Shown here in pieces: positions 1-48,600 of a stretch of 64,000 bases of DNA (within the stretch, counting starts at the first letter, position 1; every line of letters starts with the position of its first letter). Origin of the DNA: Pseudocercospora fijiensis CIRAD86 (taxonomy: Eukaryota; Ascomycota; Dothideomycetes; Mycosphaerellales; Mycosphaerellaceae); assembly GCF_000340215.1 (NCBI RefSeq), contig NW_006921546.1, positions 775,787 to 839,786 on the forward strand. The letters are read 5' to 3'. Below the pieces are notes generated by a model. The model worked only from the letters and a program-made list of their open reading frames with translations, searched no databases and was not told the origin of the DNA. Both the position numbers and the translations under genes were made by a program.

Positions 1-617
1 CCTCCTTAGCGCCTACTCTGTTTTACCTAAGACGTAAAGATCCGGTTCGATTCGACTTTCTACATAATTATAAGGTAATATACTTTACGTACCGCTCTTA
101 AGATCTATTAGAATTCCGAGGATATTAAGTAGCTCGGGCTTACTACCGCCAAATAGCGCTAAGTAGAGTATCTCGTAGATATTAGTAAGTATTACGCGAA
201 GGTTACTACTACGATTAGAAGAACCTAAGGACCGACGATCTACCTTATCTTTATATACTATAACTAGCTCTTTAACGAGCTCGATAAAACTATAGCTAAG
301 CTAGCTAAGAAAAGCGTTCCCTAGAAAGTAGCTATAATAAAAGCTATAGATAGCTCCTATACTAAGTTATATAAATATTATAGTACTACTTTTTAGTCGT
401 TCGGGGATATCTATAGCGTTACGTACTTACTTAACCTAGTAGAAAAAGATATATACTAGTAGAAGCTAGAATAGAAGGGGGACGAGGAATAGTCTAAGTA
501 TTACTAGACTATTCTAGAAAAGATATTCTATAAGCGTTAGAAAGAAACTAGTCTAAGTATAGCTCGTATAAAGAAAAAGAAGGCTAAGAAGGCTCTAATA
601 TTATATCTATTTTATAG
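1..617 (+). pseudogene. hAT transposase, C-terminal remnant (RIP-decayed)
   Basis: Frame 1, reading RIP stops as Trp/Gln, gives the C-terminal dimerisation region of a hAT transposase: a stretch resembling PTIYLIFIYYNWLFNELD, then a Lys-rich VPWK segment, an LxKYYS motif near 370, GDIYSVTYLLN near 405, and a Trp-rich end (EWKGDEEW, ILEKIFYKRW). This order is that of fungal hAT proteins. The start lies outside the window. The frame ends in a Lys-rich tail at about 610. No intact catalytic core is visible because only the last ~200 residues are present. The family call is secure from the motif order; its link to the hAT terminus at 19726 is inference. Confidence 0.72.
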
Positions 618-900
618 GTAGTAAAGGACGGAAACTAACACTACTACTACTACTTGTAGCAATAGTATAGGCTACCGAGGGTAACATAACCTATAGCAAT
701 ACGGGCAGCTATGTTTAGCAAGATAGGATAACGAGACTATCGCTTAGGCTGATAACTAGAGCCCTGCAACATAGGCATTGTAGAAGTGTGACATAAACAA
801 TGTGCTATACGAGGTTAATAATCTGTCTACTCTATAGAAGGAGGCCTCTTATATAGGCTTAAAACTGGCCTATAGGTGTAGGGCCGGTTACTAGCCAATA
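618..900 (+). repeat. Dispersed ~335-bp repeat, copy 1
   Basis: Begins TAAAGGACGGAAACTAACAC followed by CTA repeats. The same sequence is inverted at 63139-63475, and its first ~35 bp recur at 19756. The shared part runs to about position 895 (a GGGCCGGTTACTAGC match). A TATA-like TTATATAGGC followed by an A-rich stretch near 850 suggests a promoter-bearing unit such as a solo LTR, but I see no convincing LTR termini, and no tRNA-type A or B boxes of a SINE. Confidence 0.55.
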
Positions 901-987
901 GTAGGAAGTAGAGGTAGAAGAGGAAGTAACTACTAAAGTAAATAAAGAAGAGTTCGATCTCTATCGGCGCGCGAGTAAGTACTAAAC

Positions 988-1296
988 TGTAAGAACCTAA
1001 GCAAGTAAAGTCTCCTGTCCTGCCTTAGCAAGCCTATATAACAATTATGTGATCTTATTACGTATACTGTAGTACTGTCTCGCTAGCGCAAAGCCTGCTT
1101 AGCGTATACGCGGAAAAGCTCGGTCGCTTATATAGATATACTCGGTTGCTAGCTCGGTATATATACTATCCGTACGTAGCCTAGTTAATAGTAAACGCTC
1201 TGCCCTATTCTAAGAAAGGTACGGTTTAGTTCTACTATCTACTACTAAGATTAGTAGAGGGTGTTCTATACGTTGCTATATACCTATTTTCTTATA
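988..1296 (+). repeat. 5' LTR of chromovirus 1
   Basis: Starts TGTAAGAACCTAAGC and ends near TTTTCTTATA. It is nearly identical to 7614-7922. Confidence 0.85.
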
Positions 1297-1329
1297 GTTC
1301 TAAACCGTCTACCCTTCGTAGCGGCCTAT

Positions 1330-2690: not shown

Positions 2691-2699
2691 AAGTAGCTT

Positions 2700-5600
2700 A
2701 GTAGCAGTAGTACCTACGGGACGCGTATACGGAGTAATTGTTATATAAGAAGGGGAAGTTGCCGTCGAATACTTACTAGATAATACCGCTAACATTAATA
2801 TAGTATCTTAAGAATTCGTTCTACGATACTAGCCTTAGCGGATTGTTAATGCTGTACTACCTAGTACCGATAGTTTCTAGGGTAACCGAGGATACTACTA
2901 CGGAGCGTATTATCTACGCTTACGGATCGCCGACTCTATAGGCTAAGAACGCATTACTACCGGAGTTTTCTATACTTTCGAAATACCCCTCCCTAATATT
3001 ATTCTTAGTAGGCTATAGAGGCGCGATTAAAAGGTAATCGTCGATAGCTCGACGGATACCTAGACCTATAGGAACGAAGCCGTAGCGCGTACGATACGCG
3101 TACGGGAGCTATAGGAATTCTAGAAGGATATACGTAACGCTCTATACGTATATACGATTAGCGTTCGCTAGCTTCGCGATATCGCTAAAGGTTCCTCCTT
3201 ACTAGAAGAATTTAAAGACTTCGAAGACGTCTTTATAATAACGCCTAAAGCGAGATATAAGCTCCTCGAAGATATAGAGTATACGATTAACCTAATCCCC
3301 GGAACGAAGCCGCTATATAAACCTCTCTACTATTCTTTAGGAAGAGAGCTTAGCGACCTTTGTAATTACCTAAGCTTAGCCTTAGAGAATAATTAGATCT
3401 AGCTTAGTATAAGCGAGGCGGGTACGCCGATCCTATTCGTACTAAAGAAGGATAGCAGTCTAAGACTCTATATCGATTATAGGGAGCTAAACGAGATTAC
3501 TATTAAAAATCGTTACCCCCTGCCTCTTATTAGCGAAACGCTTAATAGGCTTAAGGACGCCGAATAGTATACGTCCTTAGACCTTTAGGATATATATTAC
3601 CGTATCTATATTAAGCGAGGCGACGAGTAGAAGACTACGTTCCGTACGCGGTACGGGCACTTCGAGTATAAGGTAATGCCTTTTAGGCTTACTAATGCTC
3701 CTACTACGTTTTAAGGATATATTAATAGGGCGTTAGCTAGCCTAGTTAACATTTGCTATATTGTCTACCTTAACGATATTCTTATCTATAGCAAAACGCG
3801 GGAGGACTACGTACGAGACGTACGCGCTATCCTTACGCGGCTTAGAAAGTTTGTATTATATACGAATAGAAAGAAATATTCCTTCTAGAAGAAAGAAGTC
3901 GAATTCCTAGGATTTATCGTTAGTACCGAAGGCGTATCGATAGATTAGCGTAGGGTAAACGCTATTAATAAGTAGCCTCGCCTATTAACGCTAAAGGAGG
4001 TTTAATCCTTCCTCGGATTCTATAACTTCTATCGGAGGTTTATCCCTAATTACTCCCGGATCGTTATACTACTAACCGCCCTATTAAAAGGAGCCGTAAA
4101 TAGCCGAAAGCTAGGATAGGTCCCGTAGGGCGAAAGCGAGGAGTAAGCGTTCCGCTAGCTAAAGGCTACCTTTAGCTTAGCCTCGATATTACGATACTAT
4201 AATCCTACGAAGCCCCTACGTATCGAGACCGATGCCTCTATATTCGCCTTAGTAGGAATTATATTATAATAGAGCGAAGATAGGAATTAGTACCCCCTAG
4301 CCTTCTAGTTACGAAAAATAATCCTAGCCGAGATTAATTATAAGACCTATAACTAGGAGCTCCTAGCGGTTGTCGAATCCTTTAAGTATTAGCGCCCGTA
4401 CCTCGACGGCGCCTAGTATATAATCCGCGTAGTTATCGACTACGCTAATCTTAAGGGCTTTATAAAAATAAAGTAGCTCGTCGGAAGGTAGGTAAGATAG
4501 GTAACCTTCCTTATACCTTTCGACTTTACTATTAAACATCGGGCTAGTAAACGAAATCTAGCCGATATACCTTCGCGACGTAGCGACTACGAGAGCGAGT
4601 CGTAGGCGGCGAATAACCTTCTCCCTATATTATAGTCGAAACTAGCTCTATAGTTAAATCTATCCGAGGATATCGAGCCGATTATAAAACGTATCTCTAT
4701 TATATATATAGGGATGCGAGACGCTAGTATAGCGCTAGCGGAACGTAAGAGTTTTATTATCCCGTAAGAGTAGCGGCTACTATCGTTAGGAATAACAGGC
4801 CCTACTATAAGACGCCTAATATAATCCTTAGTTTCGTACGCACTTTATAATAGCTAGAGTAAGCGAGAGGGGGAGGCTTGTATAAGACAAGCTTACTATC
4901 GGGTAGCTTAGCCTCGTTAAGTAGTTCTAACCTCCCGCCTAGCTATTCTCGTCGTAGTAACCTTATTTACTACGGCGATGCGCTATATATCCCTAAGGAC
5001 TACATATTACGTACGCAACTAATACGTATATACTACGACGACCCTTTAGCTAGACACTTTAGTATAGCTAAGACTATAGACCTAATATGCCGAAAGTACT
5101 TCTAGCTAAAGATAGCCGAGGATATTACGGCCTATGTCCGTACCTATAGAATTTGTTAACGGTCGAAGGCAAAGCGCTATCGCCTATATAGCGAGCTCGC
5201 TACGCTACCTATACTAACCCGACTATAGTAAGAATTAACGATAGACTTTATTACCGATCTCCCGCCGAGCAAGCTCGGTACCTACGTATATACTACAATC
5301 CTCGTAATAGTCGACCGCTATACGAAAATAAGCCTCTTTATCCTAACGACGAAGAAGTATATAGTAGTAGAACTCGTAGATATCCTTTAAAGGGAGGTAA
5401 TTAGGCGTTTTAGAGTGCCGTCGGGTATTGTTAGCGATCGTAGATCGCTTTTTACTAGCTAGTTTTAGAGCGACTTCTACTTCGAAGCGTATATAAAGCG
5501 TAGGCTTAGTATAGCCTTCTATCCTTAGACTAATAGGTAAACCGAACGCGCGAACTAGACCCTCGAGCAATACCTACGATACTATTACTCTAAGAACTAG

Positions 5601-6290
5601 GATAATTAGGCTAAACTATTACCTTAGGTAGAGTTTGCCTATAATAATAGCGTTTATCCTACGTTACGTATAAGCCCCTTTAAGATGCTCTACGGCTTTA
5701 ACCCTAATTTAATACTAAGCGCAAATAAGCTACTAGCTCGGGACGAGCTAACTAAGGGAAGGGCACTAGTAGCTATCGACGCTACGGAGCGACTATAGAA
5801 AGCGTATAAAACGCTTACGGAACGCTAGTAGAAAGCAGTAGAATACTAGGCTAAGCAATACAATATATACTATACTACTAAGATATATAGTATAGGCGAC
5901 CTAGTCTTACTATCGACAAAGAATATTAGCTTAGATGTCCTAAAGAGGAAACTTAGCCCGAAGTATATAGGGCCTTTTTGTATTATCGACGTAGTCGGAG
6001 CGTAGGCGTACCGCCTAGTACTACCGTTAAGTACGAAGATCTATAATGTTTTCTATGTTTCCCTCCTCGAGCCTTAGTATAGGCGCGACGGCGAGGAGCA
6101 TAAGATAAGTATACCTATCGCTAAAGGTAACGAGTAGTAGGTAGAAACAATCGTAGCTAAGAAGATAAAAAAGTAGAAGGCATACTACCTTATTAAGTAG
6201 CGAGGTTAGCCTAAAGAATACAACACTTAGAAGCTAGCTATTTATATTAAAGATTCTATAGCGTTAGACGAGTTCGAAGCTTAAGTAAAG
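2700..6290 (+). pseudogene. pol of chromovirus 1: PR-RT-RNase H-integrase-chromodomain
   Basis: RT is clear: [11 protein letters not shown] near 3421, [17 protein letters not shown] near 3475, and the catalytic box at 3763-3783 now reading YLND (Asp to Asn). RNase H follows to about 4560. Integrase has an HHCC-type region near 4990-5110, DFITDLP near 5249, VSDRRSLF near 5445 and QTERANQTLEQY near 5530-5570, so the DDE triad positions are visible. The end at about 6130-6280 reads ETIVAKKIKK(stop)KAYYLIK(stop)RG(stop)PKEYNT, a chromodomain with its Trp codons turned to stops. This places the element among the chromoviruses, whose chromodomain is thought to steer integration to heterochromatin. 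Confidence 0.88.
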
Positions 6291-6399
6291 CGCAAGCGTA
6301 GGTAGTAATTAAAACAAAAGAAAATAAAACTTAAAAAAATAGTAGATACGTACTCGTTTCGCTACTAAAAAAGGCCTATCGGCCTAGTATATATAAAAG

Positions 6400-7254
6400 T
6401 AGCGCCGCGTAGGCGCGGCGACGGCGGACCGTCTACTCTACTTATCCTTAGACTCCTACTCCTCTTCGTCCTTCTCCTCGATACCTATAGCAGTATCGAT
6501 AGTAGCGACGGCCTTAGCGCCGACGCGCTAGGCGAGGTTCTAGTATAGTTAGTATACGAAGCGTAAGTAAAACGAGGCTATAGGAAGAACTATACCTAAC
6601 GACTAATCTCTACTAAACTAGCTAGGTTAGTACCGATATACTCGAGGGTACTAAGCAAGTTAATATCCGTAAGGGACCCGCTAGCGGCCCCCTTACGGGC
6701 TAGGGCTTTGCCGCCTAGGGTTACTTTATTCTTATTAATATAAAAGGCGTCGAGCGTAGATAGGATAACTAATAACGAGGTTAGTATACGAAGCGTAAGC
6801 GGAGCGTATAAGAAACCTACGTACGACGACGGCGTCTAGGTTAGCCTAGAGTGCCTCTAAGGCCTCGTTAGACTCTTCGAGGGACTTGTAGCCGTCTAGG
6901 TCGTATAGGTCGCGCGTAGAGCGAGCGGCGCGGATACGGGCTAGTAGCGCTACTAGCGCGCGTACCGTAATAGGCATATAAGGGTAGTAGCTACTATAGT
7001 AGCGATCGTAGTTACGCTTAGTAGCAGGGTCTATATTGCTACCTATATAGAGCTTAGACAGGTCTACTAAAGCGAGTTAGTTACAAAGCGCGTATACGTA
7101 GCAAAGGGCGAGAAAACGTACCGTTAGCCGTTATATACCTAAAGCAACGGATATAGCCCTCTAGGACTTTTAGTAGGCGCTAGGTAGGCGTAGTAAGTAT
7201 CGTAGGGCTAGCGCCTACGGCGCGCTTGCCTACGGTACGTATAGGGGTAGACAT
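6400..7254 (-). pseudogene. Antisense reading frame between pol and 3' LTR of chromovirus 1
   Basis: On the minus strand an ATG at 7254 begins MSTPIRTVGKRAVGASPT. Further blocks in shifted frames look protein-like: RNYDRYYSSYYPYMP, TVRALVALLARIRAARST, DLYDLDGYKSLEESNEAL and GSLTDINLLSTLEYIGTN, closing with an acidic stretch (IEEKDEEE). The phase changes suggest introns or indels. A GCGCCGCGTAGGCGCGGCG palindrome lies near its end at 6401-6419. I do not recognise the product. Extra frames, including antisense ones, are known in some gypsy elements, but I cannot tie this one to a family. Confidence 0.45.
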
Positions 7255-7613
7255 ACTAGTAATGTTTTTTTTTAGATAGATATTTAAAAAAGAAAAATCT
7301 TTAAGTAATACTAGAGGGGCGCGAAGGGGGAGTAGGCGGGGAGTAGGCGGGTAGTGTTTAGAGCGCTTAGAAAAAGAAGAAGTTTTTAAGCGGGCTTCGA
7401 ATACTTTAAATACCCTAGTTAGTACTAGAAGCAGCCGCGCTTTAAATCTATAAACAAACAAGCAACTACGAGGCAAAACATAACGTGCCTAGCAACTATA
7501 GCCTAGCGATAGGTGCGTATAAGACGCGTATATATAGCGCAGAGTATAAGAAATAGTATAATTTACTATATTGCCCTATAGCTAGGATAGCTATACCGGG
7601 GGAAGGAGATAAT

Positions 7614-7922
7614 TATAAGAACCTAAGCAAGTAAAGTCTCCTATCCTGCCTTAGCAAGCCTATATAACAATTATGTAATGTTATTACGTATACTACGGTG
7701 CTATCTCGCTAGCGCAAAGCCTACTTAGCGTATACGCGGAAAAGCTCGGTCGCTCGTACGGATATACTCGGTTACCGGCTCGGTATATATACTATCCGTA
7801 CGTAGCCTAGTTAATAGTAAACGCTCTGCCCTATTCTAAGAAAGGCACGGTTTAGTTCTACTATCTACTACTAAGATTAGTAGAGGGTGTTCTATACGTT
7901 GCTATATACCTATTTTCTTATA
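7614..7922 (+). repeat. 3' LTR of chromovirus 1
   Basis: Second LTR copy, starting TATAAGAACC where the 5' copy has TGTAAGAACC (a RIP-type change). It follows the polypurine tract at 7598-7613. Confidence 0.85.
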
Positions 7923-8423
7923 GTACTAACCCTATAGGCTCGGAAAGAAGGCTAATAATCTCTAGATCTTACTAGTCTTCTAGACGAACTCGGAGACGAT
8001 ATTCTCGCTATATAGTAGTAGTTAGAGCCTAAGTTTCTAACGATAGCGTCGGTCGCTTAGGACGTCCTTACTATACCGAGGGTAGATATAGGCTATAAGA
8101 TATCTTTTAGTATTACTCGTTACTAGGGCCGCTTTAATCGAATATACTCGCCTATTACCTTTAAATCTATTATAGTATTCTAATACTATCTCCTTTACTA
8201 GAGTCGCTAAGGTAGGATACTAAAGATTATACTAAAGGACTTAATCGAGGAATTAGAAAACCTTAAGATTAAAGAAACCTAGTAGCGCGAGGAGAATACG
8301 AAATTTAGTCTAAGTAAAACCCTTATTAGCGATAACGAAGAGGAGGAGAGTAGAGATAGAAGGCGATACTAGGTCGAGAAGCGGAAGCGTAAATAGGCTT
8401 AGAGTAGCTTTAAAGAGACGAAG
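7923..8423 (+). other. RIP'd sequence upstream of the first H3-like gene
   Basis: A decayed, probably coding stretch on the plus strand. With RIP stops read as Gln/Trp it gives segments such as HSILILSPLLESLR and a basic Arg/Gln-rich tail up to about 8420. I cannot assign it. It could be the 3' part of another gene in the same ancestral element, cut off by chromovirus 1. Confidence 0.3.
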
Positions 8424-8632
8424 CGTTTACGTAGAAGGTAATATAGCCGGCGTATATAGCCGGCATATATAGCTAGTATATATTACTAATATATTTCGAA
8501 TTCCTAAAGAGACTAGTTACTATAGTAACGAAGCGCTTATATAGAAGGTAATATAGCCGGCGTATATAGCTAGTATATATCTCTAATATATTTTAAATTC
8601 CTAAATAGACTAGTTACTATAGTAACCTACTC
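8424..8632 (+). repeat. Two-copy tandem repeat with GCCGGC motifs
   Basis: Two ~105-bp units start with ACGAAGCG (about 8424 and 8528), each carrying ATATAGCCGGCGTATATAG and ending GACTAGTTACTATAGTA. They lie just upstream of the pyrimidine-rich leader of the first H3-like gene. The GCCGGC/TATA motif recurs around the second H3-like gene and in the MITE at 48.1 kb. Confidence 0.7.
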
Positions 8633-8712
8633 CGCTTAACTACTAACTATTTCTAAAGCTCTATTCGCTCTTCCTCTCCTTCTTTCCTTTTCCTATATTC
8701 TAAAAGATAAAT

Positions 8713-9638
8713 ATGCCTTAAGGATATAGCTCTTTAGGCCTTTCTAAGCCGGCCGCCTCCCTTTCCTTTAGCTACTATCCTTTATACGAATCTAACGAGG
8801 ACCTACTAAGACGGTTTAATAGAAGACTATTTAATCTAGAAGGCAAGAAGTATAAATATCTCCTTACGATTATAGGCTTATTAATTTTCTAGGTCCTAGC
8901 GATATACCTTCGTCGCCTAAAAGATACCTTTAGAGCCTAAAGGGCAAGGGTAAAGCAAGCTAAGTATAGGGAGACTATAGCGAGAACGAGATATCGGAAG
9001 AGTAAGACTCTCCGTAGTATATATAAAGGAAGGGGGTCCTCGGAAAATAGTACTAAAAACAAAAAGGCTTTAGGTAGATAGGAGAAAGCTAAAAAGAGTA
9101 GGCGGACGAAGACTATTATAAAAAAAAGTTATCTTTCTATTAAAAAAAAGGGTATAAGCTAGGACTCGACGATAAAGAAGCGGCGCATTAAATTAGGTAC
9201 TATTACCCTTCGCTAGATCTAGCTATTCTAAGATAAAAGAGTAACCGAGCTTTTAATCCCTAAGACTCCCTTCTAGCGACTCGTCTAAGAAATTATATTA
9301 GATTTTCGGTCTAGTATACGATTTACGGCTAAGGCGATTAGTACTCTTTAGGAAGATATATAGGCATTTCTCGTAACCGAGTCTAAGCTTTTAAACCTCC
9401 TTACTATCTATACGAAGCGGGTTACTCTTTAATATAAAGATATATAGCTTCTAGCTAAAATTCGGCGTCGGTTTATAGCAGATTAATTAGAATTTGTATT
9501 TAGTCGTTAGATTAACCTAGGAGGAGGCCTATTTTCGTATCCTTTTACTAGCTATAAGTAACGGCTATACTCCTAATTTTATCTCTACGCTATACCTAAA
9601 TCTAAGGTACGAAGTAGAAACCTAGCGCCCTATATTTA
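8713..9638 (+). pseudogene. Histone H3-like gene 1 (H3L1), first part, RIP-decayed
   Basis: A CT-rich leader (8655-8700) precedes ATG 8713. The frame then runs without indels to 9638, with stops only at codons explicable as RIP'd Gln/Trp. About 60 residues in is a hydrophobic stretch (LLTIIGLLIF-VLAIYL, ~8860-8910), possibly a membrane segment. At 8977 ATA-GCG-AGA-ACG reads (M)ARTRYRKS, recalling the H3 tail ARTKQTARKS. A basic tail follows, then the histone fold at 9175-9470: RRIKLGTITLR (H3 RYKPGTVALR), TELLIPKTPF(Q)RLV (H3 TELLIRKLPFQRLV), EIILDFRSSIRF, L(Q)EDI(Q)AFLV, IYTKRVTL(Q)YKDI(Q)L (H3 IHAKRVTIQKKDIQL). Loop 1 has canonical H3 length; AFLV and RVTL resemble CENP-A variants. It could be an H3/CenH3-derived gene; function is unknown. 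Confidence 0.78.
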
Positions 9639-9827
9639 TATAAGAAGAGTTATATTAGTAGGTAGATAGGGTAGTAGTAAATTAGTGTAGTATTCGATAG
9701 AGATCTAAGAGGAGAGAGAGGAAGGTAGGCTAGTTAGCCTAACGCTAAGCGCCAAGCCCTGCCTAAGGCATTAGGACCCTAGCTTTACTCGGTCTAGTTA
9801 TATACTAATTACGTATAACCTCTAATA
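9639..9827 (-). repeat. 3' LTR of chromovirus 2
   Basis: 189 bp, paired with 16521-16709. The purine tract AGAAGGGAAGCG (complement of 9831-9842) lies at its inner edge, as expected at the 3' LTR of a minus-oriented element. Confidence 0.9.
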
Positions 9828-11060
9828 CACGCTTCCCTTCTAAAGGCCGCGCCCTCGTAGCCTGTCTATATTCTAACCTAATCTCCGTTACTACTAACTT
9901 AGCAGATTAACTAAGCTGTTTAGCTATACTAAATTAAACGCTTAACTACCTAATTATATAACTATATTAAACCTTACCTTCTAGCACAATGTCTAACTTC
10001 TAACTGCGCTATCCTTATATATAGTAAAGTAATATATAACTAATAGAATTAAGGACTATCGACTAATTACAATACGAGCGTACCTTCCCTACTAAAATAG
10101 GTAGGTATACGAGGTATTATAGTACTGCGTCCGTTCTAAGTAATATCGTATCGAGTTCTTTGCGTCTACTCCTAAAAGACCTAGCAATGTCCGCTTCCGA
10201 GGGTTGTTCTTATTATTATAAGGGCTATTATTTACTATCGTAGTTTCACTAGCCCTAATTAGTTAGGTTTAGTAGCCTTTAATTGTTAATCTTATCTTAT
10301 CTTTCAAAAAATACAGCTCGTCTAGTTTCTATAGATAAAGGCTATTATAAGTGTAGTAGTTAAGGTTCGCCTCGCTTAAAGAGTCGGAAAGATTAAGAAG
10401 TAACCTATTATCCGCAAGATCGACCTCGGCTAGCTTAGCTCTATAGTTTTACCCTTAGTTAGTCTATTAATCGTTTAACCTTTTTAGTCCCTTAGTCCTT
10501 CGAACGGCTTAACCCCTTTTAACCTAGTGCCTTAGCCTTAGGCTATAGTATAGGTAAGGTTGTCTTCGTAGGCGTAGCGATAATAGCAAGTAATATTAAC
10601 AATAGCGGCGCTAGTCGTCTTAGCGCTAACTTTACCTCGCTTCTAATCTTCTTCTTCTTTAACTAATAATACACTCCGCAATACCGTTACTAATATAGGC
10701 GCGTCGGCTGCCGGTATACTACTAGCTCGTAGCGCGATACTATTATTATTACTATCGTTACTCGTATACGCGCGCGCCCTCGCCGATTGCCTAGGCCTCG
10801 ATAGAATAAAGGAATAAAAGGGGGACCTATAGGGCTCGGTAGTAGAGAGGTAGATATCTTTTAGAAGAGCAGGTAATTAATTAACGCGTTATAGCGCGCT
10901 TGTTAACACTCGGTGCGCGTTTACTATAGTAGTATAGTCTTATTGTCCTAGTTTGCCGGCCTCTAATTGGTTAGCTAATAGTACCCTAGGGGTAGCATTG
11001 TTCCTAGGTCTCTTTTAGTAATATTAGCGGCATTATAAGCTCTTAGCCTTCTTCTTGTTT
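9828..11060 (-). other. 3' region of chromovirus 2 between chromodomain and LTR
   Basis: About 1.2 kb of RIP'd DNA. I see no recognisable domain on either strand; short protein-like pieces occur but without continuity. Confidence 0.4.
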
Positions 11061-14000
11061 TTTACGCTAGTCTAATATTCGTCTAATAACTTAGTTATGT
11101 CTTTAAAGGAACCTTTAACTTCCTACGAGTCCTATTTAGGTAAATAGCCTTACTATCTTAATAGGTACTCCTTCTTGCCTTTCCTAGTCCGGTATTGTAG
11201 GATACGTTCTATAGACTATAGCTCTTCGCTATTAGCTAAGACTTCTTCTAACTTAGTAGGCGCTTTATCGCCTTCGCGCTAGTAGTATAGTTTAAGGAGG
11301 GAGATATAGAAGGTATTATAGATAGTATAATAAGGTAGAAGCTACAACTAGTAGGCCTAGCTATTGCCCTTCGGTTCTCGGATATAGAATAGGCTAATGT
11401 ATCTTAGTGCGAGCTTAGGCCTTGTTTTGCTATTAGGGGATAGGTGTTTGCGGATACGGAGGTTCTTAGTGCTTAGTATAACTATATCGCCTTGTTTAAA
11501 GGCTATTAGCGTATAGTGCTTATCGTAGTAGGTCTTTTAGTACTCTTAAGCCCTTATTAGCTTCTTAGCTATCTTAGCGTAGATTTCTCGTATCTTTTAA
11601 ACCCGTTCTATTGCCGCTAGTGTCTCTAGTACTTAATGCGCTTCCCTTTCCTTACGCTCGGCCTCGAGCGATAGGGGGTCTTATAGCATAGCAGTGTTCT
11701 AGCATATTATAGCTATATATAGTAAGACCTTAGTTAATAAGTAGACACTGTTATTATATACGAATTCAGCTAGTTATAAGAGGTTAACCTATCTATTAGG
11801 GTCCTCGTTAATATAGCTACGCAGGTACTACTATAGCGTAGTATTCTACCTCTCGGTCTAGCTATCCGTTTGTAGATAGAAGGCTATAGATAGCCGATAC
11901 TTAAGTCTTAGCTATAGGCATATCTTACTCTAATAATAAGATATAAATATCGAACCCCTATCGGAGACTATCCCCTTAGGGGTCCCCTAATAGCTATAGA
12001 AGATGTTATTCTATAGTGCTTTAGCTATATTAATAGCCGTCTAATCCTTCCGGGCAGGAATGTAACGAGCGCCCTTAGTAAACTAGTTTACGACGACTAG
12101 GACGGCGTTAAAGATGTCTTTGCTTCCTCTTCGCTTAGTAGGGGGAAGACCTATAATAAAGTCTATTATAAGCTCTATAAAAGGCTTCTTTAGAACAGGG
12201 AGTAAAGATAACTCGCTAAATAGTAAGTGTTTTAGTGCTTTAACTCGCTAGTATACTATATAGGTCTGTATATACTCCTTTATATACCGCTTACTATTTA
12301 GCTAGTAGTATATACGCGATAGTAACTCGTGCGACCTCTCTATACTATAGTAACTAGCGAGCTTACTATTATAGTGCCTCTTTAAAAGCTCTTATCTAAT
12401 CGATTGTTTAGCGGGGATATAGTATCTGCCCTTAAACTTTAAGTAACCTTTATCGTCGATCGACTAATTATTACTCTTACTAGATCGAGTCGTTCGCCTA
12501 CTTACAAGCTTATCGATACGTTTAGTAGTAAAGGCGTCCCTCTACTAAGCACGTAATAGCTCGTCTATAAACGATTGACTATCCCTATTTGTAAGGTTAT
12601 TTAATAGTATCCTCGCTATCGAACGAGGTACGTATTATATATATCTAATAGTACTAGTAGCCGGATTAACTATATTAGTGCTTTAATCGCTATTACTATA
12701 TATAGCGATATCGACTAGGGAGTTATTATAACTTCTCCTATCTATATCCTTAGCCCTTGCCTTAATACGTACTATTAATATAGTAAGAGCATTAATATAC
12801 TTTAAGCCGTCGTAGAGTCCGGTAAGCCGCTTATCCTACGCGTGCTTATTAACAATACGGGCTATAGCAATCTTATACTATAGGGTTAGAAACAAAGAAT
12901 TAATATATTAGGTTTCGCTATCGTAATTAGGTCGCCTCGATAGGCTATCGATAGGGTTACTTACGCCTAGCTAGTATAATATATTAAAATCGAACCTAGC
13001 GAGGTAGACGGCCTATCTAGCCTATCGACCTATAACCCTAGTAACCTTCGTAATTCTACGGAGGTTGTTATAGTCCGTATAGACCTAAATAGTATACTAT
13101 ACACTATCGAGATAGTAGCGCTAGTGCTTAAAGGCCTCGATAATAGCTAGGAGCTCTTACTCGTAGGTCTCGTAGCGGCGCTTAGCATTAATTATCTTCT
13201 ATAAAAAGAAGGCAATTAGGTACTAGTAATAGTTATTATCTAATTGCTATAATATAATAGCCGATATAGCGAACTATAAAGCGTTAGTCTTAATTCGGAT
13301 CTGTTTGCTTAGTACGAAATAGTATAGTAAGGGGACTTTAGTAAAGCGTTGCTTTAGGCCGTTAAAAGCGGCTTATGCTCTATTAGTCTATTTGAACTCT
13401 CTAGATAGGTTAGCCTTAGTTTTAGTAAGCTTAGTTAGGGGCATTATATGCCGTAAATAGCCCTTAATAAACCGACGATAGAAGTTAGCGAAGCCGAGGA
13501 ATAACTAAAGTTCCTTAATACTAGTAGGTATTAGCTACTTAGTAATAGTCTTAATCCGGTTAGGATTAGCCTTAATACCCTCGGTTAATACGAGGAAGCT
13601 AAGGAAGGACACCTCTTTAGTAGCAAAGGTGTATTTAGAAGGCTTGCAATATAGGCTATAGGCCCTTAGGCGGTCGAGGACCTTACGGACTATAGCCTAG
13701 TACTCCGTAATATTAGGTAAATAGATATAAACTAGGATGTTATCTAGGTGAACTATATAGAGATAGTCTAATAGGCCCGAGAGGGCCCAATTAATATAGG
13801 ACTAGAATATAGCAGAGGCGTTAGCTAGGCCGAATAGTATAACTAAGTACTCGAAATAGCTATAACGAGTGCGAAAGGCTATCTTCTATTTATCGCCCTT
13901 ACGAATACAGATACGGTAATAGGCGTCCTTAATGTCTAATATAGTGTAGTAGTAGGTACTAGAAAGGCGATCGAGGGTCTTATTAATAAGCGGAAGTAGA

Positions 14001-15000
14001 TAGCGGTCCTTAACAGTAATAGCATTAAGCCTACGGTAATTAACGTACAGGCGTAGGCCACTATCCTTCTTTAGTACGAATAGGATAGGTATACTAGCAG
14101 GACTGTTACTATACCGTATCTAGCTATTAGCTAGGTTTTCCTCTAGATACTTACGCAATATAGCAAGCTTGCGTTTACTAAGGTTATAGAGTGGCCTGAA
14201 AGGAACCTCCTTGCCCTCTATTATATTAATCTTATAATCCGTCTCTTTAAATATAGGCAATATCGATGCTAGGTAGTGTTTAAATACATTAATATAGGGC
14301 TCTCGAATAGGCTCTAGTATGCGAGCAAGCTAATTAGGGTCTATACTATTAGGGGGCACAGGTTTATCGTTATTACTACTAAGCAGGTCGGTAGTCGGAT
14401 TAACTAAGGCGGAGGCTAGTATTAGGTTACTAATAAATAGGACCCTAATATTATTAGGACACTCGCTAATATCGATATGTTTAATATCCTCCTTCTTAGC
14501 GATTCTAAATCGCTACTATTAAAGGCCTAAGTCTATAACTGTAGCGTAGTACTTAAGAACAGGGTTGCTAATAACAATTTCAAATAGGAGGATATCTATA
14601 TCTACTACGTAGATAGTAAAGTTTAGTAGGCGCTTATTACCGAGGTCGTCTCTTAGGGCTATATAGATATAGTACGCTCTATAGGTTAAGTGCTAAGCGC
14701 TATTAAACTAAGCAAGGGTTAGTAGGTTAGTCCTAGGCAATTGTCGGAGGTCTAATTGCTTAGCTAGGCGATAGTTAATAAGGGCACTAACTCTACTTCC
14801 TAGGTCTAGCGTAGTCTTAGTTTTATAATTGTTCCTATATATATCCCCTACGAGACAGGTACGTATAATAGCTAGTACAATATCGATAGTCTTACGCCGT
14901 ACGAGGCTAATAGTTAGTACGGCGCTTATTCTTTTTTCGAAGGTTAGCCTATAGGGGTAGCGTTAGCTGCTAAGAGGTTTTTTCGGTACTTAGCGGTAGT
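11060..15000 (-). pseudogene. pol of chromovirus 2: RT-RNase H-integrase-chromodomain
   Basis: Read on the minus strand, RT begins near 14090 with [19 protein letters not shown], continues through LNAITVKDRYLLP, and has a catalytic box near 13731-13760 reading HLDN (ancestral YLDD). RNase H and integrase follow between about 13.4 and 11.4 kb. The C-terminus near 11230-11090 reads IERILQYRTRKGKKEYLLR followed by stops at Trp positions and DS(stop)E, a chromodomain. Trp, Gln, Asp and Met codons are lost in the RIP pattern. Domain order and chromodomain resemble chromovirus 1, but LTRs and sequence differ, so it is a separate family. Confidence 0.85.
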
Positions 15001-16500
15001 ACGGTCGACTTAGGCCTAATCCCTAGGTTTGTCGTATTAGCCTAGTAGATAGCTAGTGCTATTATAGTTGAAGCATTTCAATCCGGTTAGGAGGCTGCTA
15101 TAGTTGCTACTATTATTAGTCGAGCGGTTAGAATTGTAGGGATACGAGCCCTTTCCTCGGCCCCTATTACGGCCTCCTCTATATAGCCGTCGGCTACGGC
15201 CTCTTCCTCGGTTATTGCTACTGTTTCTATTATTAGTATTATTGTTTTAGGCAGAACCCTAGTTTCCTCCGCGGCTACGGTTACTAGATAGTCGTATCCT
15301 AGATCCTAACCGTTACTATAACTATACCGTACGCTCTATAGTTTCTACTTCGATTATAAAGTAAATTCGTATAAGATTAGCCTATTCGAATATACGGCGG
15401 CGGTCTAATTCGAGGATAAGCTCCTACCTTAATTTAGGGCGTATTTCGGAGATCTGTATAGAGTTAGTCTTAGCCGGAAGGTTATCCTCGAGGGTCTTTA
15501 AATAGGCTTTAAACGAGCGAGCCGTTTAATTAGTCTTTTGCTTAGCTCGAAGGTACTAGTCCTAAGTATACTATTGTCTTAGTATCGGGTTTCTGAGAGT
15601 GTCTGGTATAATAGTTTTGTAGGTCTGCTACTAAATAGCAGTCTAGTTATTAAGGGAGTCGAAATAGTTATCCTATATGCGCTTTAGGTCGCTATTGATG
15701 TACTATATAGCGTAGACAACTAGTAAATAGTCGTCTAGAAGAGCCTTCGGTATATTTCGTTAGTTAAGCTTATAGTTACGTATTTAATCGTTGTACTGCT
15801 TTTAGCTAGAGCTATTAAATACGGTATAGTCCTTAAGCTTAGTATCCTTCTTTTAAACGGGTAGTAAGGAAGGCCCTGCTATCGGCTTAGTATTAGTTGT
15901 TAGGGCTTCCTATAGGCGGCGAATCTCGAGGAGATTATCCTTTAGCTATTGTTCTTAACGTAGGGCAGTAAGCCTGTTTTAAGTAGCTTCTTAAAGCCTC
16001 GCTACTAGCTAGGGGCTAAAGGCTAGCTAGCTATATCGTCGATTAATAATATTGTTAAGAATGTCGTTAATAGGCAATTCTAGATTATTACCTAGAATTA
16101 TAGGTTCTTCTTTAGTAGGCCCTCTAGTAGGCTCTTTAGTAGGAGGCACTTTAGTAGGCACTTTAGCGGGAACTGTGCTACTAGCGTTGTTATTGCTAGC
16201 GCTGCTAGCGGCGCCGCGGTTGTTATTGCTTCGTAATAAGCCGGCTATTATAAGGGGTAACACTAATAATATATTATAGGCCCCTAAGATACGGATATAG
16301 CGGAATTAGTAGATATCGGCTTAGTGCGATTAACTTAGTATAATAGGCCGTATAGAAGGCCTTGCTTAATAATTAGTACGGTTGTTTTAATAGAATAGTA
16401 CGTCTAGGTCCCGTTCTTCGGGCGTAATATAGTTAAATCGATAGTTTTCGTAGCTATACCGCTAAAAGCTTAAAATAAGGACTATCTAGCTGCTACCCTT
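15000..16500 (-). pseudogene. gag of chromovirus 2
   Basis: Minus-strand Gag frame. Near 15045-15085 the zinc knuckle reads KCFNYNSTSYLLG(stop)Y, restoring to CX2CX4HX4C when RIP-derived Tyr is read as Cys or His. The N-terminal part (16027-16263) is still an open 78-codon frame rich in Ala, Ser, Asn, Pro and Thr. Flanked by the 5' LTR at 16521. Confidence 0.7.
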
Positions 16501-16520
16501 AAAGGGTAGATCGAATACTA

Positions 16521-16709
16521 TATAAGAAGGGTTATGTTAGTAGGTAGATAGGGTAGTAGTGAATTAGTATAGTATTCGATAGAGATCTAAAAGGAGAGGG
16601 AGGAAGGTAGGCTAGTTAGCCTAACGCTAAGCGCTAAGCCCTGCCTAAGGCATTAGGACCCTAGCTTTACTCGGTCTAGTTATATACTAATTACGTATAA
16701 CCTCTAACA
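16521..16709 (-). repeat. 5' LTR of chromovirus 2
   Basis: 189 bp, same length as its partner. Ends CTAACA, directly followed by the ATTTA duplication at 16710-16714. Confidence 0.9.
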
Positions 16710-16714
16710 ATTTA

Positions 16715-17277
16715 CTCGGCTATTATAGAGACGAGCTATATTTAGACTAGTTTCTTTATATATCGCGACCTCGCGAGTAGTAAGCGAAAGGGCGATAGAA
16801 CGTCTATAATACGTCTCTTTTTAGATATAAGATATAAAGGTCCTAAGAAGCCCTAGTATTCTAACTATAAGGATAATCTTTAGTATTAGTACTTTAATCC
16901 TCTATACTACGAAGTAGATAGTAAGTCTACGAGAGAGAAACTTTAATAAGAAATTCTCTATAATACGTAGCGCTATTATATAGCTATAGATACGTACTAA
17001 GTCTAGTAACTCGAAGAAGAATTAAAATAGCGACCGAGGAGGAGATTTATAGTAGATTAGTAGAGTCGAGGTCTTATAAGTGAAGTACGAGATAATATAG
17101 GCTCTTAGTCGTTTAAAGTAACGTACTATATAAATAACTAGGCGTACTACTCTTATTTACTTACGACCTAAATCCTAGAATACTCTTCTCGTACTTTTTA
17201 TATACTTTTCTAATACCTTACCTATAAGCGCTCCGCGATAACGAGTAAATATAAGCTATAGGGTTTCCGCTCGGTAC
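16715..17277 (+). pseudogene. H3L1, C-terminal extension after the retrotransposon insertion
   Basis: Continues the H3L1 frame exactly: the codon split by the insertion (TA at 9637-9638 plus C at 16715) keeps phase. The frame then stays open, apart from RIP-type TAG/TAA, for about 180 codons, giving SAIIETSYI, FFIYRDLASSKRKGDRTS, IIRLFLDIRYKGPKKP and LEEELK segments. No domain is recognised. The H3 fold is thus followed by an extension of over 200 residues, unlike a canonical histone. The end is uncertain; GCCGGC-type noncoding motifs start near 17320. Confidence 0.5.
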
Positions 17278-17829
17278 CTTAGCCTCCGAGATAGGGTAGA
17301 GTTAAATTTAGAGCGATAGCCGGCACTCGTAGCCGGTATATAGAGACGTTAGTAGGCCTTTTCCTACTAAATAACTAGCTTGTTTAGTATAGCCTACCTA
17401 ATATTTCTTATATTTCCTAGTAATAGGCCTAGGTTACTTATGAGATTACTATAGCTAGTAAGGGCATTACTAAAGAAAATCTGTACTATAGTAGGATACT
17501 ATTATTACGCCGGCTATTTATTAAAAGGAAGCTTTCGCCTATTACTATACCGGCTATATATACCGGCTATATTTCAAAGTTTGCCGTATTTGCCTTTTTT
17601 AGCCGTACCTGCCTTCTTTCCTTGCTCTAACGTTACTATAATATAGGCTTGCGCGACGCTTACTCTATTACCTAGCGATACCGCGATACTACCTCTCTCC
17701 CTATATTTAACCTTCGTATCGATACTTATACCTCTACGCTCTATATCTACTATCTCTATAATACCCTCGCTCTACGCGCGCTTTCGTATACCTTCGTAAC
17801 GCACTTTTTTCCTTAATTCGACGACTTTT
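17278..17829 (+). promoter_or_regulatory. Spacer and probable promoter of H3-like gene 2
   Basis: RIP'd intergenic DNA with ATAGCCGGC and CCGGCTATATA motifs at about 17325 and 17555, then a CT-rich stretch (17690-17790, with a TATATTTA near 17703) of the kind that precedes fungal start codons. Confidence 0.4.
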
Positions 17830-17832
17830 ATA

Positions 17833-18586
17833 ATACCGAGTCTACTTAACTAAGTTACGACGCCTCGTAAGAAGGGACCTACTACTTCTACGCGTCGTAA
17901 TAAGACCGGAAATAGTAGAACGAGTATAGTATATTAACGTAAGAAGGCTACTGCTACTACCGCTAGATCCGGTACTAGAAAGGGCATCGCGAGTAAGGCT
18001 CCGCGTAAGATAACGGCGGGCAAGGCTCTACGTAAGACGACGACTAGCGCTTCTACTACTAGTAGCAATAATCGTACGAAGCGTCGATAGCGCCTAGGAA
18101 GTAAGTCCTATTTGTAGCCGGTAGCGTAGCCGGTAGCGTAGCCGGCATTCTTACTTTTTTTTTACTAATCCTTCTTTAGCTATAGCCCTTCGTAAGATTC
18201 GGAAGTATTAGAAGGACTATAATCTCCTAATCCGTAAAGCTCCTTTCCGACGACTTATTCGCAAAATTGCCTAGTATTTTATACTAGACCTTCGCTTCTA
18301 AGCCTCTATAATAGACGCCCTTTAAGAGGCTTTAGAAGCCTATCTAGTTCGTATATTCGAATATATATTTCTCTTCTATCTCTTTTCGAACTATACTTAT
18401 ACTATTTTAGCGGTTAACCTTATAGCTATCTACGCGAAGCGTATTACAATTATAGATAAGGATTTTAAAACCCTTAATTAGATTCTTAAAGGCTATAATG
18501 CCTATATTCGAGATTATAGTAGGTAGGATAGATATTCTAGTAGGAAGGATATTCTTAGTATTATCTATAATCGTTTCTATATATAA
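17833..18586 (+). pseudogene. Histone H3-like gene 2 (H3L2), three exons, RIP-decayed
   Basis: Exon 1 (17833-18100, start now ATA) encodes an H3-type basic tail: ARSGTRKGIASKAPRKITAGK, compare STGGKAPRK of H3. Intron 1 (18101-18179) has GTAAGT, a TACTAAT branch site and TTTAG; its removal in phase 1 yields RLGT-IALRKIRKY, matching PGTVALREIRRY. Exon 2 (18180-18362) gives NLLIRKAPFRRLIRKIA, DLRF(Q)ASIIDAL(Q)EALEAYLVRIFE, the H3 alpha-1 and alpha-2 helices. Intron 2 (18363-18410; donor GT now AT, acceptor TTTTAG) splits the codon after FE. Exon 3 gives VNLIAIYAKRITIIDKDF, matching NLCAIHAKRVTI-KDI, then about 35 extra residues to TAA 18584. Splicing consistent with the H3 frame at both introns makes this a strong call. 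It is more H3-like than H3L1. Function is unknown. Confidence 0.85.
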
Positions 18587-18849
18587 AATATACCGCTATT
18601 ATACGGCGCTATATACCGCGCTCTTAATACTCTCTAAGTATATATATATATATATAGTATAGTATAATTTATTAGCCGTACGGAATAGAAGTCTTAGAGA
18701 ATCCCGTTAGTACTAAGAAGTAAAAATGCCGGCTACGCTACCGGCTACGCTACCGGGTCTTATAAAGAACTAGAACAAAATAGACATTCTAGTTAATTTG
18801 TATTAGTTTAGATTTTAATAAAAAGAAAATAGGGAAAAAGGAGGAAGGT

Positions 18850-19330
18850 TAAAGAACCTAATACTAATATTTATAGGAATTATCCCTATTTTCTAGACTA
18901 TATTATATACCTGCCTTCGTAACTCTACCTAATACTTTCTCTAAATATCCTTATACTCTACCTACTAGAATTTTAACTAGGTATCTAGACCTAAAGCTAC
19001 CTCTATATCTTTTACTGTCTTCTATAGTTTAAAGGACTCTTCTATAGTAGCCTCTATCTCTTTATATAATACGAAGTTACTACCTACCCTACCCTTTATA
19101 TCTACTAAATAACTAAGACTTCTAAGGAACGAACTAGTATTTAGCCTTAGTATAGCGAGTAACTAGTAGAACGTAGTATAGAGCTGCTTTATAGCTCTTT
19201 TATATACTATACCTATACCGATAGAGGAGCTATCCTAGTACTTAATATTAGAGAATAGTTTAGTAGGAAAGTATTAAAACTTCTTAAGGAGGGCTTCGAG
19301 GGAGATCGATAAGTTCTACCTAGATTTAGA
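18850..19330 (-). pseudogene. Unassigned minus-strand frame downstream of H3L2
   Basis: On the minus strand from about 19330 a frame open except for RIP stops reads PTKLFSNIKYQDSSSIGIG, LRLNTSSFLRSLSYLVDIKG, RVGSNFVLYKEIEATIEESF and KTVKDIEVALGLDT, then a helical Glu/Lys/Arg-rich segment. Length is about 160 residues and the character is helical, perhaps coiled-coil. I recognise no family. GCCGGC motifs lie on both sides (18.73 and 19.53 kb), so it appears to be a third unit of the same ancestral element as the H3-like genes. Confidence 0.4.
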
Positions 19331-19619
19331 TAAGGATATTCTACTAAGCACTTAGGGAATTAAATAGCGAGCGAAAGGATAAAATTTATATCTAGTAATA
19401 AGTATAGTTTCTAAACTAAACTAGAATAGCTTGTATCTATATATGCTTTTAATTAGTTAGTGCCCTTAGCTAATTGTCTATAGATTTAGGGTTATATAAG
19501 TACCTTCCTATAACTAGAAAATGCCGGCTACGCTGCCGGCTATACTCTCGTATCTTATAAAGGGCTTACTTCGAGTTACGTATATATTCTTATACTTCTT
19601 AGAAACCGATAAATTCTAT

Positions 19620-19726
19620 AGTTCGAACTAGCTACTCCTATAGTTGCTTAGTAAACTAAACTAAACTAAACTAGATCTTCGGCTTAGCAAACTAAACTAA
19701 ACTAACCCGAACTACTATAGGGTCTA
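19620..19726 (+). mobile_element. Right terminus of a hAT-type element
   Basis: Ends in a CTATAGGGTCTA terminus whose complement, TAGACCCTATAGTAGTTCGG, matches the MITE terminus TAGACCCCGTAGTAGT. Like the MITE it has two subterminal ACTAAACTAAACTAA blocks separated by CTTCGGCTTAG. GATATACT (19727-19734) would be the 8-bp target duplication; the partner is not in the window. Confidence 0.7.
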
Positions 19727-45690: not shown

Positions 45691-48600
45691 ATTAGTATAA
45701 CCTATTATATACTAATACTATATACTAGTTATAAACTCGTCGCCTACTACTTTTGCTAAGATAGTAGTCTCTACGAATATCGAGGACTAGCTAAATAATA
45801 ACGAGCTACTAATTAAAGCCTTAAATAGCGGCAAAGACGTCCCTAAACATATTATACTAAACCTATATAGCATCGACAAGCCTCTTCTTACGTTAGTAAT
45901 AAAAAGGCTCCTTCCGTATCTAGAGAAATATTTTTTATTTAACTAGTCGAACGGGAAGTAGCTTCGCTAGCCCGTTAAGAGGCATTATAAGGAGGAGAAA
46001 GATATAGTATACGCTATTACTAGTAACCTTAACTATCCTACTAAACCTAGACATAGGCTATTAATACGCGAATAGTACTTTAAAGATCCTAAATAGGCTC
46101 CGAAGTAGTATATTAGGGGAATGCTTCTATAGGACAATACAAATAGTCCGAATAATAAAATTTAGAGGTCTATAGTCTACTTAGTATATCGCCTTATATA
46201 GAATGTTATAAGGGACAAGTTTACCCTACCGGCCGGTAATAATGCTAAAGAGGAAGACGTATCTAAGAGCGAGACTAATAGATTCCGATAAACTACGCCC
46301 TCTATATCTAAGCGTAGAGCAAGTTCTGCCTCTACTAGTAAGACTAGTAGAGCCGGTCGGGTATTTAAGAAGATAACGCTAGGAGATTTGTATAGTAGCA
46401 AGGATACTAATCTAGTAATATCCGACGCGCTACGCCCTATTAAGCCGGACCGGGCTAAGATTACGTTATAGTTTAGTATTATCGACTAGCGGTTACCTTT
46501 AATAGCAGACTACGAGGTATTTAGCTTAAATTAGTCTATCTTATAATCGAAGACTTCTAATAATATTAGTACAAAGGATTTGTTATAGCTCTAGCTCGTA
46601 CGAGAGTTATTACTATCGCCCGAATAGTAGAAGTACGAATTCTTCGTAGTAATCGATCTAGCTCGCGGCCCTAAAGGTCTTTCTAAATGCAAGACTAATC
46701 CGATATTCTACTCCCTAGCTATAGAGATATATAATAGCTTAGATACTAGGATTTCTACTAGACTCGATTTCCTTATCGGTAAAAATATAACGGACTATAC
46801 TAGGTTACCTTCTATATATCGTCGACCGTCCCTACTAAAGGCTTCTAGAACTATCGACCTAACTTAGTACGGTGCTTCTATAGCTAGCAATCCTACCGAA
46901 ATTGATATCGGTTAGAGTCCGTAGTCGCCTACGAAATTAGCTATTAAGTAAGCTAAGGACGACCGACTTACTTATAAGGATCGTACTAATTATAAGCGTT
47001 ATAAATAGGTTATCGCGGATAGATTCTAGAGGATATAGGAAGAGTAAGAGGTAGCCTAGTAGATAGCTACGCGAAAAGCTATAGCCGACGTTGCTACAGA
47101 TATAATAGCGATTTAGTAGGCTATCGATAAGGCAGTTAATAAGGTGCTCCGCGATAACGGTTATAATAGAAATACTGCTTTACTTCTAGTCGCCCTTAAC
47201 GATTTAGTTCGAACGGCCGTCCGTTCTATATAGCCCGATACGATAGAGTATACGGTAAAGGCCTATATTACTTCTACTTTGCCTAAGATATAGCTACCTT
47301 TAAATAGACTAGTACTATCCCTAGTACAACCTCCGGCGTAGACAAATACTAGTAATAATACTAAGGACGATAGAAAAATTAAATCGAGTAAAGCTAATAA
47401 TACTAATAGTAAGAAGGCTAGAGATATAATCGACTTAAAGCGAGATCGAATTCGCTAGAAATAGATCGAGTTGTTACCGAGTTAGATCGTATCGCTACTA
47501 GATCCGAATAAGCCCGAACTCGCTATACGACTACTAGGTACGTAAGTAGAAGTCTAAGCCGACCCTCTACCGATCTAGACGTTAGTAGATTTTGTAGATT
47601 AGATCTCGTCGGCGGTACCTAGCTAGTCGATAGATTTAGATATAGAAACCGACGTCGAGAAGCAGTTGTCTAGTAACGTATACTCCTACCTCGACGCTAA
47701 GAACTTTAAGTTAATATACGATTTTAGACTACTCGATCCTTCTTAGACTTCGCCGTATATAGGCGTTATTCCGCCTAATTAGAGATCGACTCGTCTATTA
47801 AAGTCTTACTAATTCTATATAATTACCTAGACGCTTCTAGCTTCTATTACTAGCGCGGACTTCTATATCGGCGGTATAGATATAGGTATAGGTAAGACGG
47901 TATATACGTTAGGGTACGTCGCTATAACCTCGATATAGTAGAGGGTATAGAGTAATAACGGGCTATTAACTACTAACGCCTATCCTTTTCGGCTATCTAA
48001 TTCGTCGCTTAACCTAGGACTTCGGCTAAATAAGAAAATTGCGTTCGATCTATAGGTATTAGCTAGCGGTATAAAGCCGGTTATCTGCCCTAGCGTTTAT
48101 ATTATCTATATTCCTAGACCCCGTAGTAGTTCGGTTTGCGAACTATAGAACGTATATAGTTTGGTTTCTTAGCGGTACCCCTCCGGTTTAGTTCCGGTTT
48201 AGTTTTTTACCCCGCTAGTCTAAGCCGGTTTCCGAGAATATCTAACTAAACTACGACGATATACGACGATATACAACGATATACAACGATATACGACGAT
48301 ATACGACGACCTCGGATCGGGTCTAGGGGCCCTATCTATACGATTGTATCTATGTTTCGGGCTATTTAGACGTGTTTTAGATTAGGTTTTTGTCCGTAGC
48401 CGGTATATAGCCGGCAAACCGGTCCGTATACCGGTTCCTTAGCAAACTAAACTAAACTAAACTAGAATTTCGGCTTAGTAAACTAAACTAAACTAACCCG
48501 GACTACTACGGGGTCTATATATTCCGAAGCAGCTAGCCGAAAACTAGATATATAAGATCGATAACTTTATACTACCTAGAGCTATATTCGTATATCTTAT

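What the first reader, a model, noticed from the sequence alone, without database searches (positions are those of the whole stretch)
8713..18586. Two histone-H3-fold genes inside RIP'd transposon DNA
Seen: at 9175-9470 and at 17833-18586 the reading frames follow the H3 core helix by helix (TELLI-K-PF-RLV; LLIRKAPFRRLIRKIA; DLRF; EAYLV; AKRVTL / AKRITI). In the second, removing GT-AG introns restores the frame exactly inside the PGT-VALREI and FED-TNL stretches. Known: core histone genes are normally single-copy or small families in euchromatin and are not standard transposon cargo. Inference: a mobile or repeat-associated family of H3/CenH3-like proteins, which could mark chromatin around the element or compete with host H3 or CENP-A.
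Basis: partly seen in the sequence, partly recalled or inferred. Interest (0 to 1): 0.93.

Follow-up and report, generated by a model that had tools for sequence, protein, structure and literature searches.

The report
RIP-killed fungal transposon carrying histone genes
The window holds a mutated copy of an already published jumping gene of a banana-leaf fungus that carries two genes resembling histone H3; new here is evidence that one of them is an intron-bearing gene with much of the H3 tail, and that both kept their reading frames while the jumping gene diversified.

Summary
Both H3-fold genes are real but are not separate insertions: they lie about 1.3 kb apart on one ~9.5-9.8 kb hAT transposon, which a gypsy-like element later split in this copy. 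The genome is almost certainly Pseudocercospora fijiensis. Dhillon et al. 2019 (PMC6710886) described this element with 784 RIP-killed H3-like copies, read as passive capture of a host H3 transcript; a similar, intact case is known in Pyrenophora (PMC3538342).

Three results disagree with passive transcript capture. (1) The second gene (B) has two introns: one within a codon of a host H3 intron, the other a 48-nt stretch that is the published '16-aa insertion'. (2) B keeps the H3 tail from K9 to K27 in register (two of three subfamilies). (3) Between three subfamilies, 7 of 7 fixed indels in predicted coding parts are multiples of three, against 1 of 6 in introns and 3' flank; transversions lean to third codon positions only weakly (p 0.02-0.07). 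So these were probably translated genes of the element. They are H3-type, not CenH3. Their function is unknown; a nucleosome role is inference. All transposon copies scored or aligned here are broken.

The parts
1..624 (+). hAT copy, piece 1; roughly 1-330 reads as the middle-to-late part of the transposase (RIP'd)
   Evidence: aligned to other copies; frame printed
901..987 (+). hAT copy, piece 2, between two later insertions (625-900 and 988-7921)
7922..9638 (+). hAT copy, piece 3; about 7965-8185 corresponds to the hAT C-terminal dimerisation-like region
   Evidence: Pfam Dimer_Tnp_hAT 16.4 bits for the same region of another copy (L013), below the 21.4 cut-off
8713..9486 (+). gene A, H3-like with a long basic N-terminal extension; H3 core 9184-9480
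8843..8892 (+). tentative intron in gene A (50 nt); 5' end GC in 15, GT in 14, TT in 1 of 30 copies; 3' TAG in 30 of 30
9639..16709 (-). gypsy-like LTR element inserted between A and B, flanking duplication ATTTA
   Evidence: coding strand and gypsy type judged by eye, no family search made
16710..19726 (+). hAT copy, piece 4, to the right end of the element
17833..18100 (+). gene B exon 1: extension plus H3 tail from K9 on; start uncertain
18101..18179 (+). gene B intron 1
18180..18362 (+). gene B exon 2 (H3 core, first part)
18363..18410 (+). gene B intron 2, 48 nt; the published 16-aa insertion
18411..18496 (+). gene B exon 3 (end of the H3 core, to the stop codon shared by 23 of 24 copies; the window copy differs there)
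19707..19726 (-). right terminal inverted repeat
48115..48517 (.). 403-bp internal-deletion derivative with both ends of the same element and the 8-bp duplication TATATTCC on both sides

Best explanation
This is a RIP-inactivated copy, cut up by later insertions, of the known ~9.5 kb hAT DNA transposon of Pseudocercospora fijiensis that carries two histone-H3-like genes. Shown here: both genes lie on one element; B has two introns and an H3 tail; three subfamilies of the element carry A and B; reading frames were kept between the subfamilies. Inferred: B came from a piece of genomic H3 DNA (host exon 2 to exon 3 with the intron between), not from a transcript. The genes were spliced and translated while the element was active, giving H3 variants that could pair with host H4 and enter nucleosomes, and so may have changed packaging or silencing of element DNA or helped its transposition. 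Multiplication then drew RIP, which broke the copies examined and left the host H3 and CenH3 open.
For: One element with hAT ends: (8-bp duplications in 2 of 3 full copies tested and in the window's derivative). Introns. Tail: (1 and 0 of 3000 shuffles reach the window's score against two H3 queries). Frames: 7 of 7 coding indels multiples of three against 1 of 6 noncoding, Fisher two-sided 0.0047. Transversions, subfamily 1 against 2: 20 of 37 in codon position 3, p 0.0075; silent 14, changing 18, p 0.005. A and B each one clade across subfamilies.
Against: With the third subfamily the transversion tests weaken to p 0.022 and 0.068. Tail and N-extension show no silent-site excess. B's introns carry fewer transversions than its exons (1 of 77 and 0 of 48 against 15 of 173 and 12 of 83), unexpected for free introns. 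Intron 2 keeps its 5' GT in only 3 of 24 copies, and the subfamily-3 intron 1 is a multiple of 3. If all coding indels of one gene part are taken as one event the indel test is no longer significant (2 against 3, p 0.10). No spliced RNA, no protein and no function were tested. The A core is intronless.
Confidence: 0.6

Rival explanations
1. Passive transduplication, as published: the hAT picked up a host H3 transcript or retrocopy, which has been dead cargo since and was multiplied and then killed by RIP.
For: The A core is intronless, as the paper reports for its near-full-length copies. All copies scored other than host H3 and CenH3 carry stops. Transversion support for selection is weak once three subfamilies are used.
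Against: Two introns in B, H3 tail in register, frame-keeping indels, and no group-level indel in the H3 cores.
Confidence: 0.3
2. The genes are CenH3-like and act by competing with the host centromere histone.
Against: A and B lack the loop-1 insertion of host and Wilcoxina CenH3 and the C-terminal GLG; neither groups with CenH3 in the 16-row tree; the best solved-structure matches are canonical H3s.
Confidence: 0.04
3. The two genes are plain segmental duplicates of host histone genes that only happen to lie in repeat-rich DNA.
For: Likeness to host H3 (55-64% of residues in six comparisons).
Against: Same context, ends and 8-bp duplications in other copies.
Confidence: 0.01

Closest known systems
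H3-carrying hAT of Pseudocercospora fijiensis and relatives (Dhillon et al. 2019, PMC6710886; text parts 1-5 of 7 and passages seen)
   Same: About 9.5-9.9 kb, 20-bp terminal repeats, 8-bp duplications, one or two H3-like copies per element with 16 extra residues in the second, RIP in the repeats, original H3 on scaffold 6 (here C6).
   Different: The paper infers capture of a transcript without introns, an insertion by mutation, mostly truncated copies, and no dimerisation domain. Here B has two introns and an H3 tail, frames are kept between subfamilies, and a sub-threshold dimerisation match is seen.
hAT element with H3L of Pyrenophora tritici-repentis (Manning et al. 2013, PMC3538342; passages and section 20 part 1 seen)
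   Same: hAT with a transposase and an H3-like gene that matches neither H3 nor CenH3 completely, and changes in the amino-terminal tail.
   Different: 5.6 kb with a central ORF, one H3L, nearly identical intact copies, transcripts known. Whether the two are related was not testable here; PMC6710886 reports no DNA similarity between the elements.
Host histone H3 and CenH3 of the same genome (L001, L064)
   Same: Same fold; core identity to H3 55-64% in six comparisons; B intron 1 lies three bases from a host H3 intron; tail lysines in register in B.
   Different: Where H3 has His113 (numbering recalled) A and B read Tyr; N-terminal extensions; the position of Ser10 differs in B. CenH3 has a loop-1 insertion and its intron elsewhere.

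Membership tests
hAT DNA transposon | short terminal inverted repeats at sharp ends | tested here: met
   Right end found in 18 of 20 loci; left end in L049 and in 3 of 5 stretches fetched for it.
hAT DNA transposon | 8-bp target duplication | tested here: met
   2 of 3 full-length copies tested and the 403-bp derivative; the third copy does not match.
hAT DNA transposon | hAT transposase with dimerisation region | tested here: inconclusive
   Dimer_Tnp_hAT 16.4 bits, cut-off 21.4; other transposase pieces no hAT hit in Pfam or NCBIfam; motifs recognised by eye only. PMC6710886 reports DUF659.
Published P. fijiensis hAT-H3 family | same genome, element size, ends and paired H3 copies | tested here: met
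   73.9 Mb, C1 11.88 Mb against a published largest scaffold of 11.8 Mb, H3 on C6, spans of 9479 and 9841 bp (computed by hand), 772 first-look histone candidates. The printed terminal-repeat letters of the paper were not available to compare.
Retrocopy of host H3 (published reading) | no introns | tested here: not met
   Not met for B; the A core has none.
Histone H3 | H3 core over the Pfam histone cut-off, no loop-1 insertion | tested here: met
Histone H3 | N-terminal tail with K9, K14, K18, K23, K27 | tested here: met
   B, subfamilies 1 and 2; partly in subfamily 3; not significant for A (one subfamily-3 copy tested).
CenH3 | loop-1 insertion and grouping with CenH3 | tested here: not met
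Nucleosomal histone | assembly with H4 into nucleosomes | not testable with these tools
   No experiment or structure model made.

The most novel reading that the evidence does not exclude
hAT transposons of these fungi carry H3 variants as long-lived, selected genes of their own: mobile DNA that supplied its own nucleosome part, from intron-bearing genes with modifiable tail lysines, to change how its DNA was packaged, silenced or moved. The Pyrenophora H3L would then be a living relative or a second invention rather than an accident.
Probability: 0.33. Interest if true: 0.8.

Novelty: already known. Interest (0 to 1): 0.42.

Why it matters
The element itself is in print. The correction would matter: the published case stands as an example of passive capture and death of a housekeeping transcript, whereas introns, tail and kept frames point to working histone genes on a transposon. 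If so, selfish DNA that brings its own histone becomes testable in species with live copies.

Tried and rejected
CenH3 reading: disfavoured by loop 1 and the tree. Anti-silencing through loss of K9 and K27: considered, then dropped, because B keeps both in register in subfamilies 1 and 2. Closer relatives of A and B among public proteins: the first search gave one protein, a CenH3-like one of Wilcoxina; the second, with an alignment of A cores and B exon 2, gave 921 hits among 1068 candidates, the best 120 listed; I read 8 of them, the top one being a partly duplicated H3, and recognised no transposon-type H3. Left part of the element: three pieces gave no Pfam hit. A SelB-wing match of a transposase piece is below its cut-off and ignored. 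The NCBIfam search of one transposase piece gave nothing. The third protein search, structure prediction and fold search were not used. A first indel count (1 of 7 noncoding) held one end-of-alignment artefact; recounted as 1 of 6.

Full report
What was checked. The finding names two H3-fold genes at 9175-9470 and 17833-18586. Read in frame with stops left as stops, both follow the H3 core. Pieces with X at stops match PF00125: window A core 49.3 bits, a window B exon-2 piece 51.9 bits (it includes a few residues of intron 1), cut-off 26.4; the window B exon-3 piece gave nothing. The A core of another copy matches 176 distinct sequences of solved structures, the best 60 shown being H3s.

Where it is. 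The window is C15:775787-839786 of a 73.9 Mb genome in 30 contigs. Its C1 has 11.88 Mb and the intact H3 lies on C6; the published P. fijiensis assembly has 74 Mb, a largest scaffold of 11.8 Mb, and H3 on scaffold 6. I take the genome as P. fijiensis; this is inference, not a named record.

How many. The histone-family search had 772 first-look candidates; 150 were scored, all over the cut-off; 148 carry in-frame stops. The two without are the host H3 (L001) and an exon of what reads as the host CenH3 (L064). Unscored candidates were not seen, so an unbroken transposon copy is not excluded.

One element. DNA searches with A and with B (40 scored each) and comparison of the 48 loci then held show A and B on the same repeat, about 1.3 kb apart once the insert is left aside. 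In the window the repeat is cut into 1-624, 901-987, 7922-9638 and 16710-19726 by a 276-bp insertion, an LTR element at 988-7921 (repeats of 300 nt, 94% alike) and a gypsy-like LTR element at 9639-16709 with the duplication ATTTA. To the left the window's copy runs into another repeat. The right end is sharp at 19726; its terminal repeat is found there in 18 of 20 loci. The left end was seen in L049 and in 3 of 5 stretches fetched for it; two of these three copies have identical 8-bp duplications (CTAAATAC, CTAAAGGG) and span 9479 and 9841 bp by my arithmetic; the third pair does not match. The 403-bp derivative at 48115-48517 has TATATTCC on both sides. The transposase is recognised by eye in other copies; its dimerisation region scores 16.4 bits, below the cut-off of 21.4.

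RIP. The index is 0.15 (A) and 0.14 (B) against 1.56 and 1.41 in two GC-rich stretches. At some in-frame stop columns a minority of copies carry a sense codon that differs by one C/T change, as RIP predicts.

Introns. In 24 B copies of subfamilies 1 and 2, intron 1 begins GTAAGT in 23, ends TTTAG in 23, carries ACTAAT near its end in 24, and is 79 (19 copies), 91 (3), 103 (1) or 116 nt (1) long. Exon 2 is 183 nt in 23 of 24, exon 3 86 nt in 24 of 24; exon 1 is 268, 265 or 295 nt in 22 of 24 and 270 (frame lost) in two. In the two subfamily-3 copies intron 1 is 69 nt, a multiple of three; their exons 2 and 3 have the same lengths as elsewhere. Intron 1 splits the Thr codon of the G-T motif with phase 1; the host intron splits the Gly codon before it, three bases upstream (read by eye). 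Intron 2 is 48 nt in 24 of 24, ends TTTTAG in 24 and carries ACTAAT in 20 of 24; the 5' GT at the proposed site survives in 3 of 24, most others showing the change that RIP makes at TpG. Left out, it lets F-E and N-L stand at the H3 spacing. Its 16 codons are the published 16-aa insertion. This contradicts the published inference of transcript capture for B; the A core is intronless. A may have one intron further upstream, tentative because its 5' end is GC in 15 of 30 copies.

Tail. Exon 1 of B aligns without gaps to the H3 tail from K9 on. The window's score is reached by 1 of 3000 shuffles (H3 residues 1-40) and 0 of 3000 (host letters); a second subfamily-1 copy 1 and 0; subfamily 2, 2 and 0; subfamily 3, which lacks 27 nt there, 37 and 59; a subfamily-3 copy of A, 615 and 834. 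The likeness starts about where host exon 2 starts (by eye), which suits capture of genomic exon 2 to exon 3; inference.

Subfamilies and constraint. Three subfamilies carry both genes: the common one, one about 80% identical (L003, L066-L069) and a third (L076, L077). In a 16-row tree A is one clade (100/100), B by exon 2 one clade (97/98), neither joins CenH3, and how A and B relate is open. RIP makes transitions only, so I counted transversions. Subfamily 1 against 2, cores pooled: codon positions 9, 8, 20 (p 0.0075); silent 14, changing 18, expected silent 0.22, p 0.005; the 13 control regions or wrong frames all gave p 0.17 or more. With the third subfamily: 13, 10, 22 (p 0.022) and 13 silent to 26 changing (p 0.068), ratio 0.56. 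Weak to moderate. Fixed indels between subfamilies are clearer: coding 3, 12, 6, 21, 3, 3, 27; noncoding 1 (A intron), 1, 24, 10, 1 (B intron 1) and 17 (3' flank). Dropped: differences of 63, 73 and 1 nt at alignment ends. 7 of 7 against 1 of 6, Fisher two-sided 0.0047; with intron 1 as one event 0.008; with the coding indels also collapsed to one per gene part 0.10. Against me: B's introns vary less than its exons, and tail and N-extension show no silent-site excess.

Literature. PMC6710886: text parts 1-5 of 7 and passages. PMC3538342: passages and section 20 part 1 of 2. PMC4981457 and PMC13041039: passages. Eight searches listed no paper that, by title and start of abstract, treats introns or selection in the P. 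fijiensis H3 copies; subscription papers are not covered.

Mechanism. Best reading: the genes were working parts of the element and their products H3 variants that could join host H4 in nucleosomes. Whether they changed silencing, packaging or transposition is not shown. Overall: a known object, with a probable correction of its published explanation.

Noticed in passing
window 48115-48517; L067 818-1201; L069 3895-4268: A ~400-bp internal-deletion derivative of the H3-carrying hAT, with both ends; in L067 and L069 the same kind lies inside larger subfamily-2 copies, so the short form moved too.
   Followed up: partly
window 625-900 and 63198-63480; L050 5835-6117: A ~280-bp repeat present in three places, once inside the hAT copy; looks like a small non-autonomous element.
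   Followed up: no
window 988-7921: An LTR element of about 6.9 kb with 300-nt direct end repeats 94% alike, inserted into the hAT copy.
   Followed up: partly
window 18101-18179 and other B introns; 8460-8600: Short repeats of the form TAGCCGGTAGCG vary in number inside intron 1 of B and recur elsewhere in the element; subterminal-type repeats or intron expansion.
   Followed up: no
C13, C14, C6 (listing): Copies 82-85% identical to the subfamily-2 query, apparently the third subfamily, lie mostly on C13 in the list (7 of the 9 rows on C13, C6 and C14), which hints at local or chromosome-limited spread.
   Followed up: no
L049 3530-6700: The left ~3 kb of the element, before the recognisable transposase, has no Pfam hit in three pieces; it might hold another gene like the central ORF of the Pyrenophora element.
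   Followed up: partly
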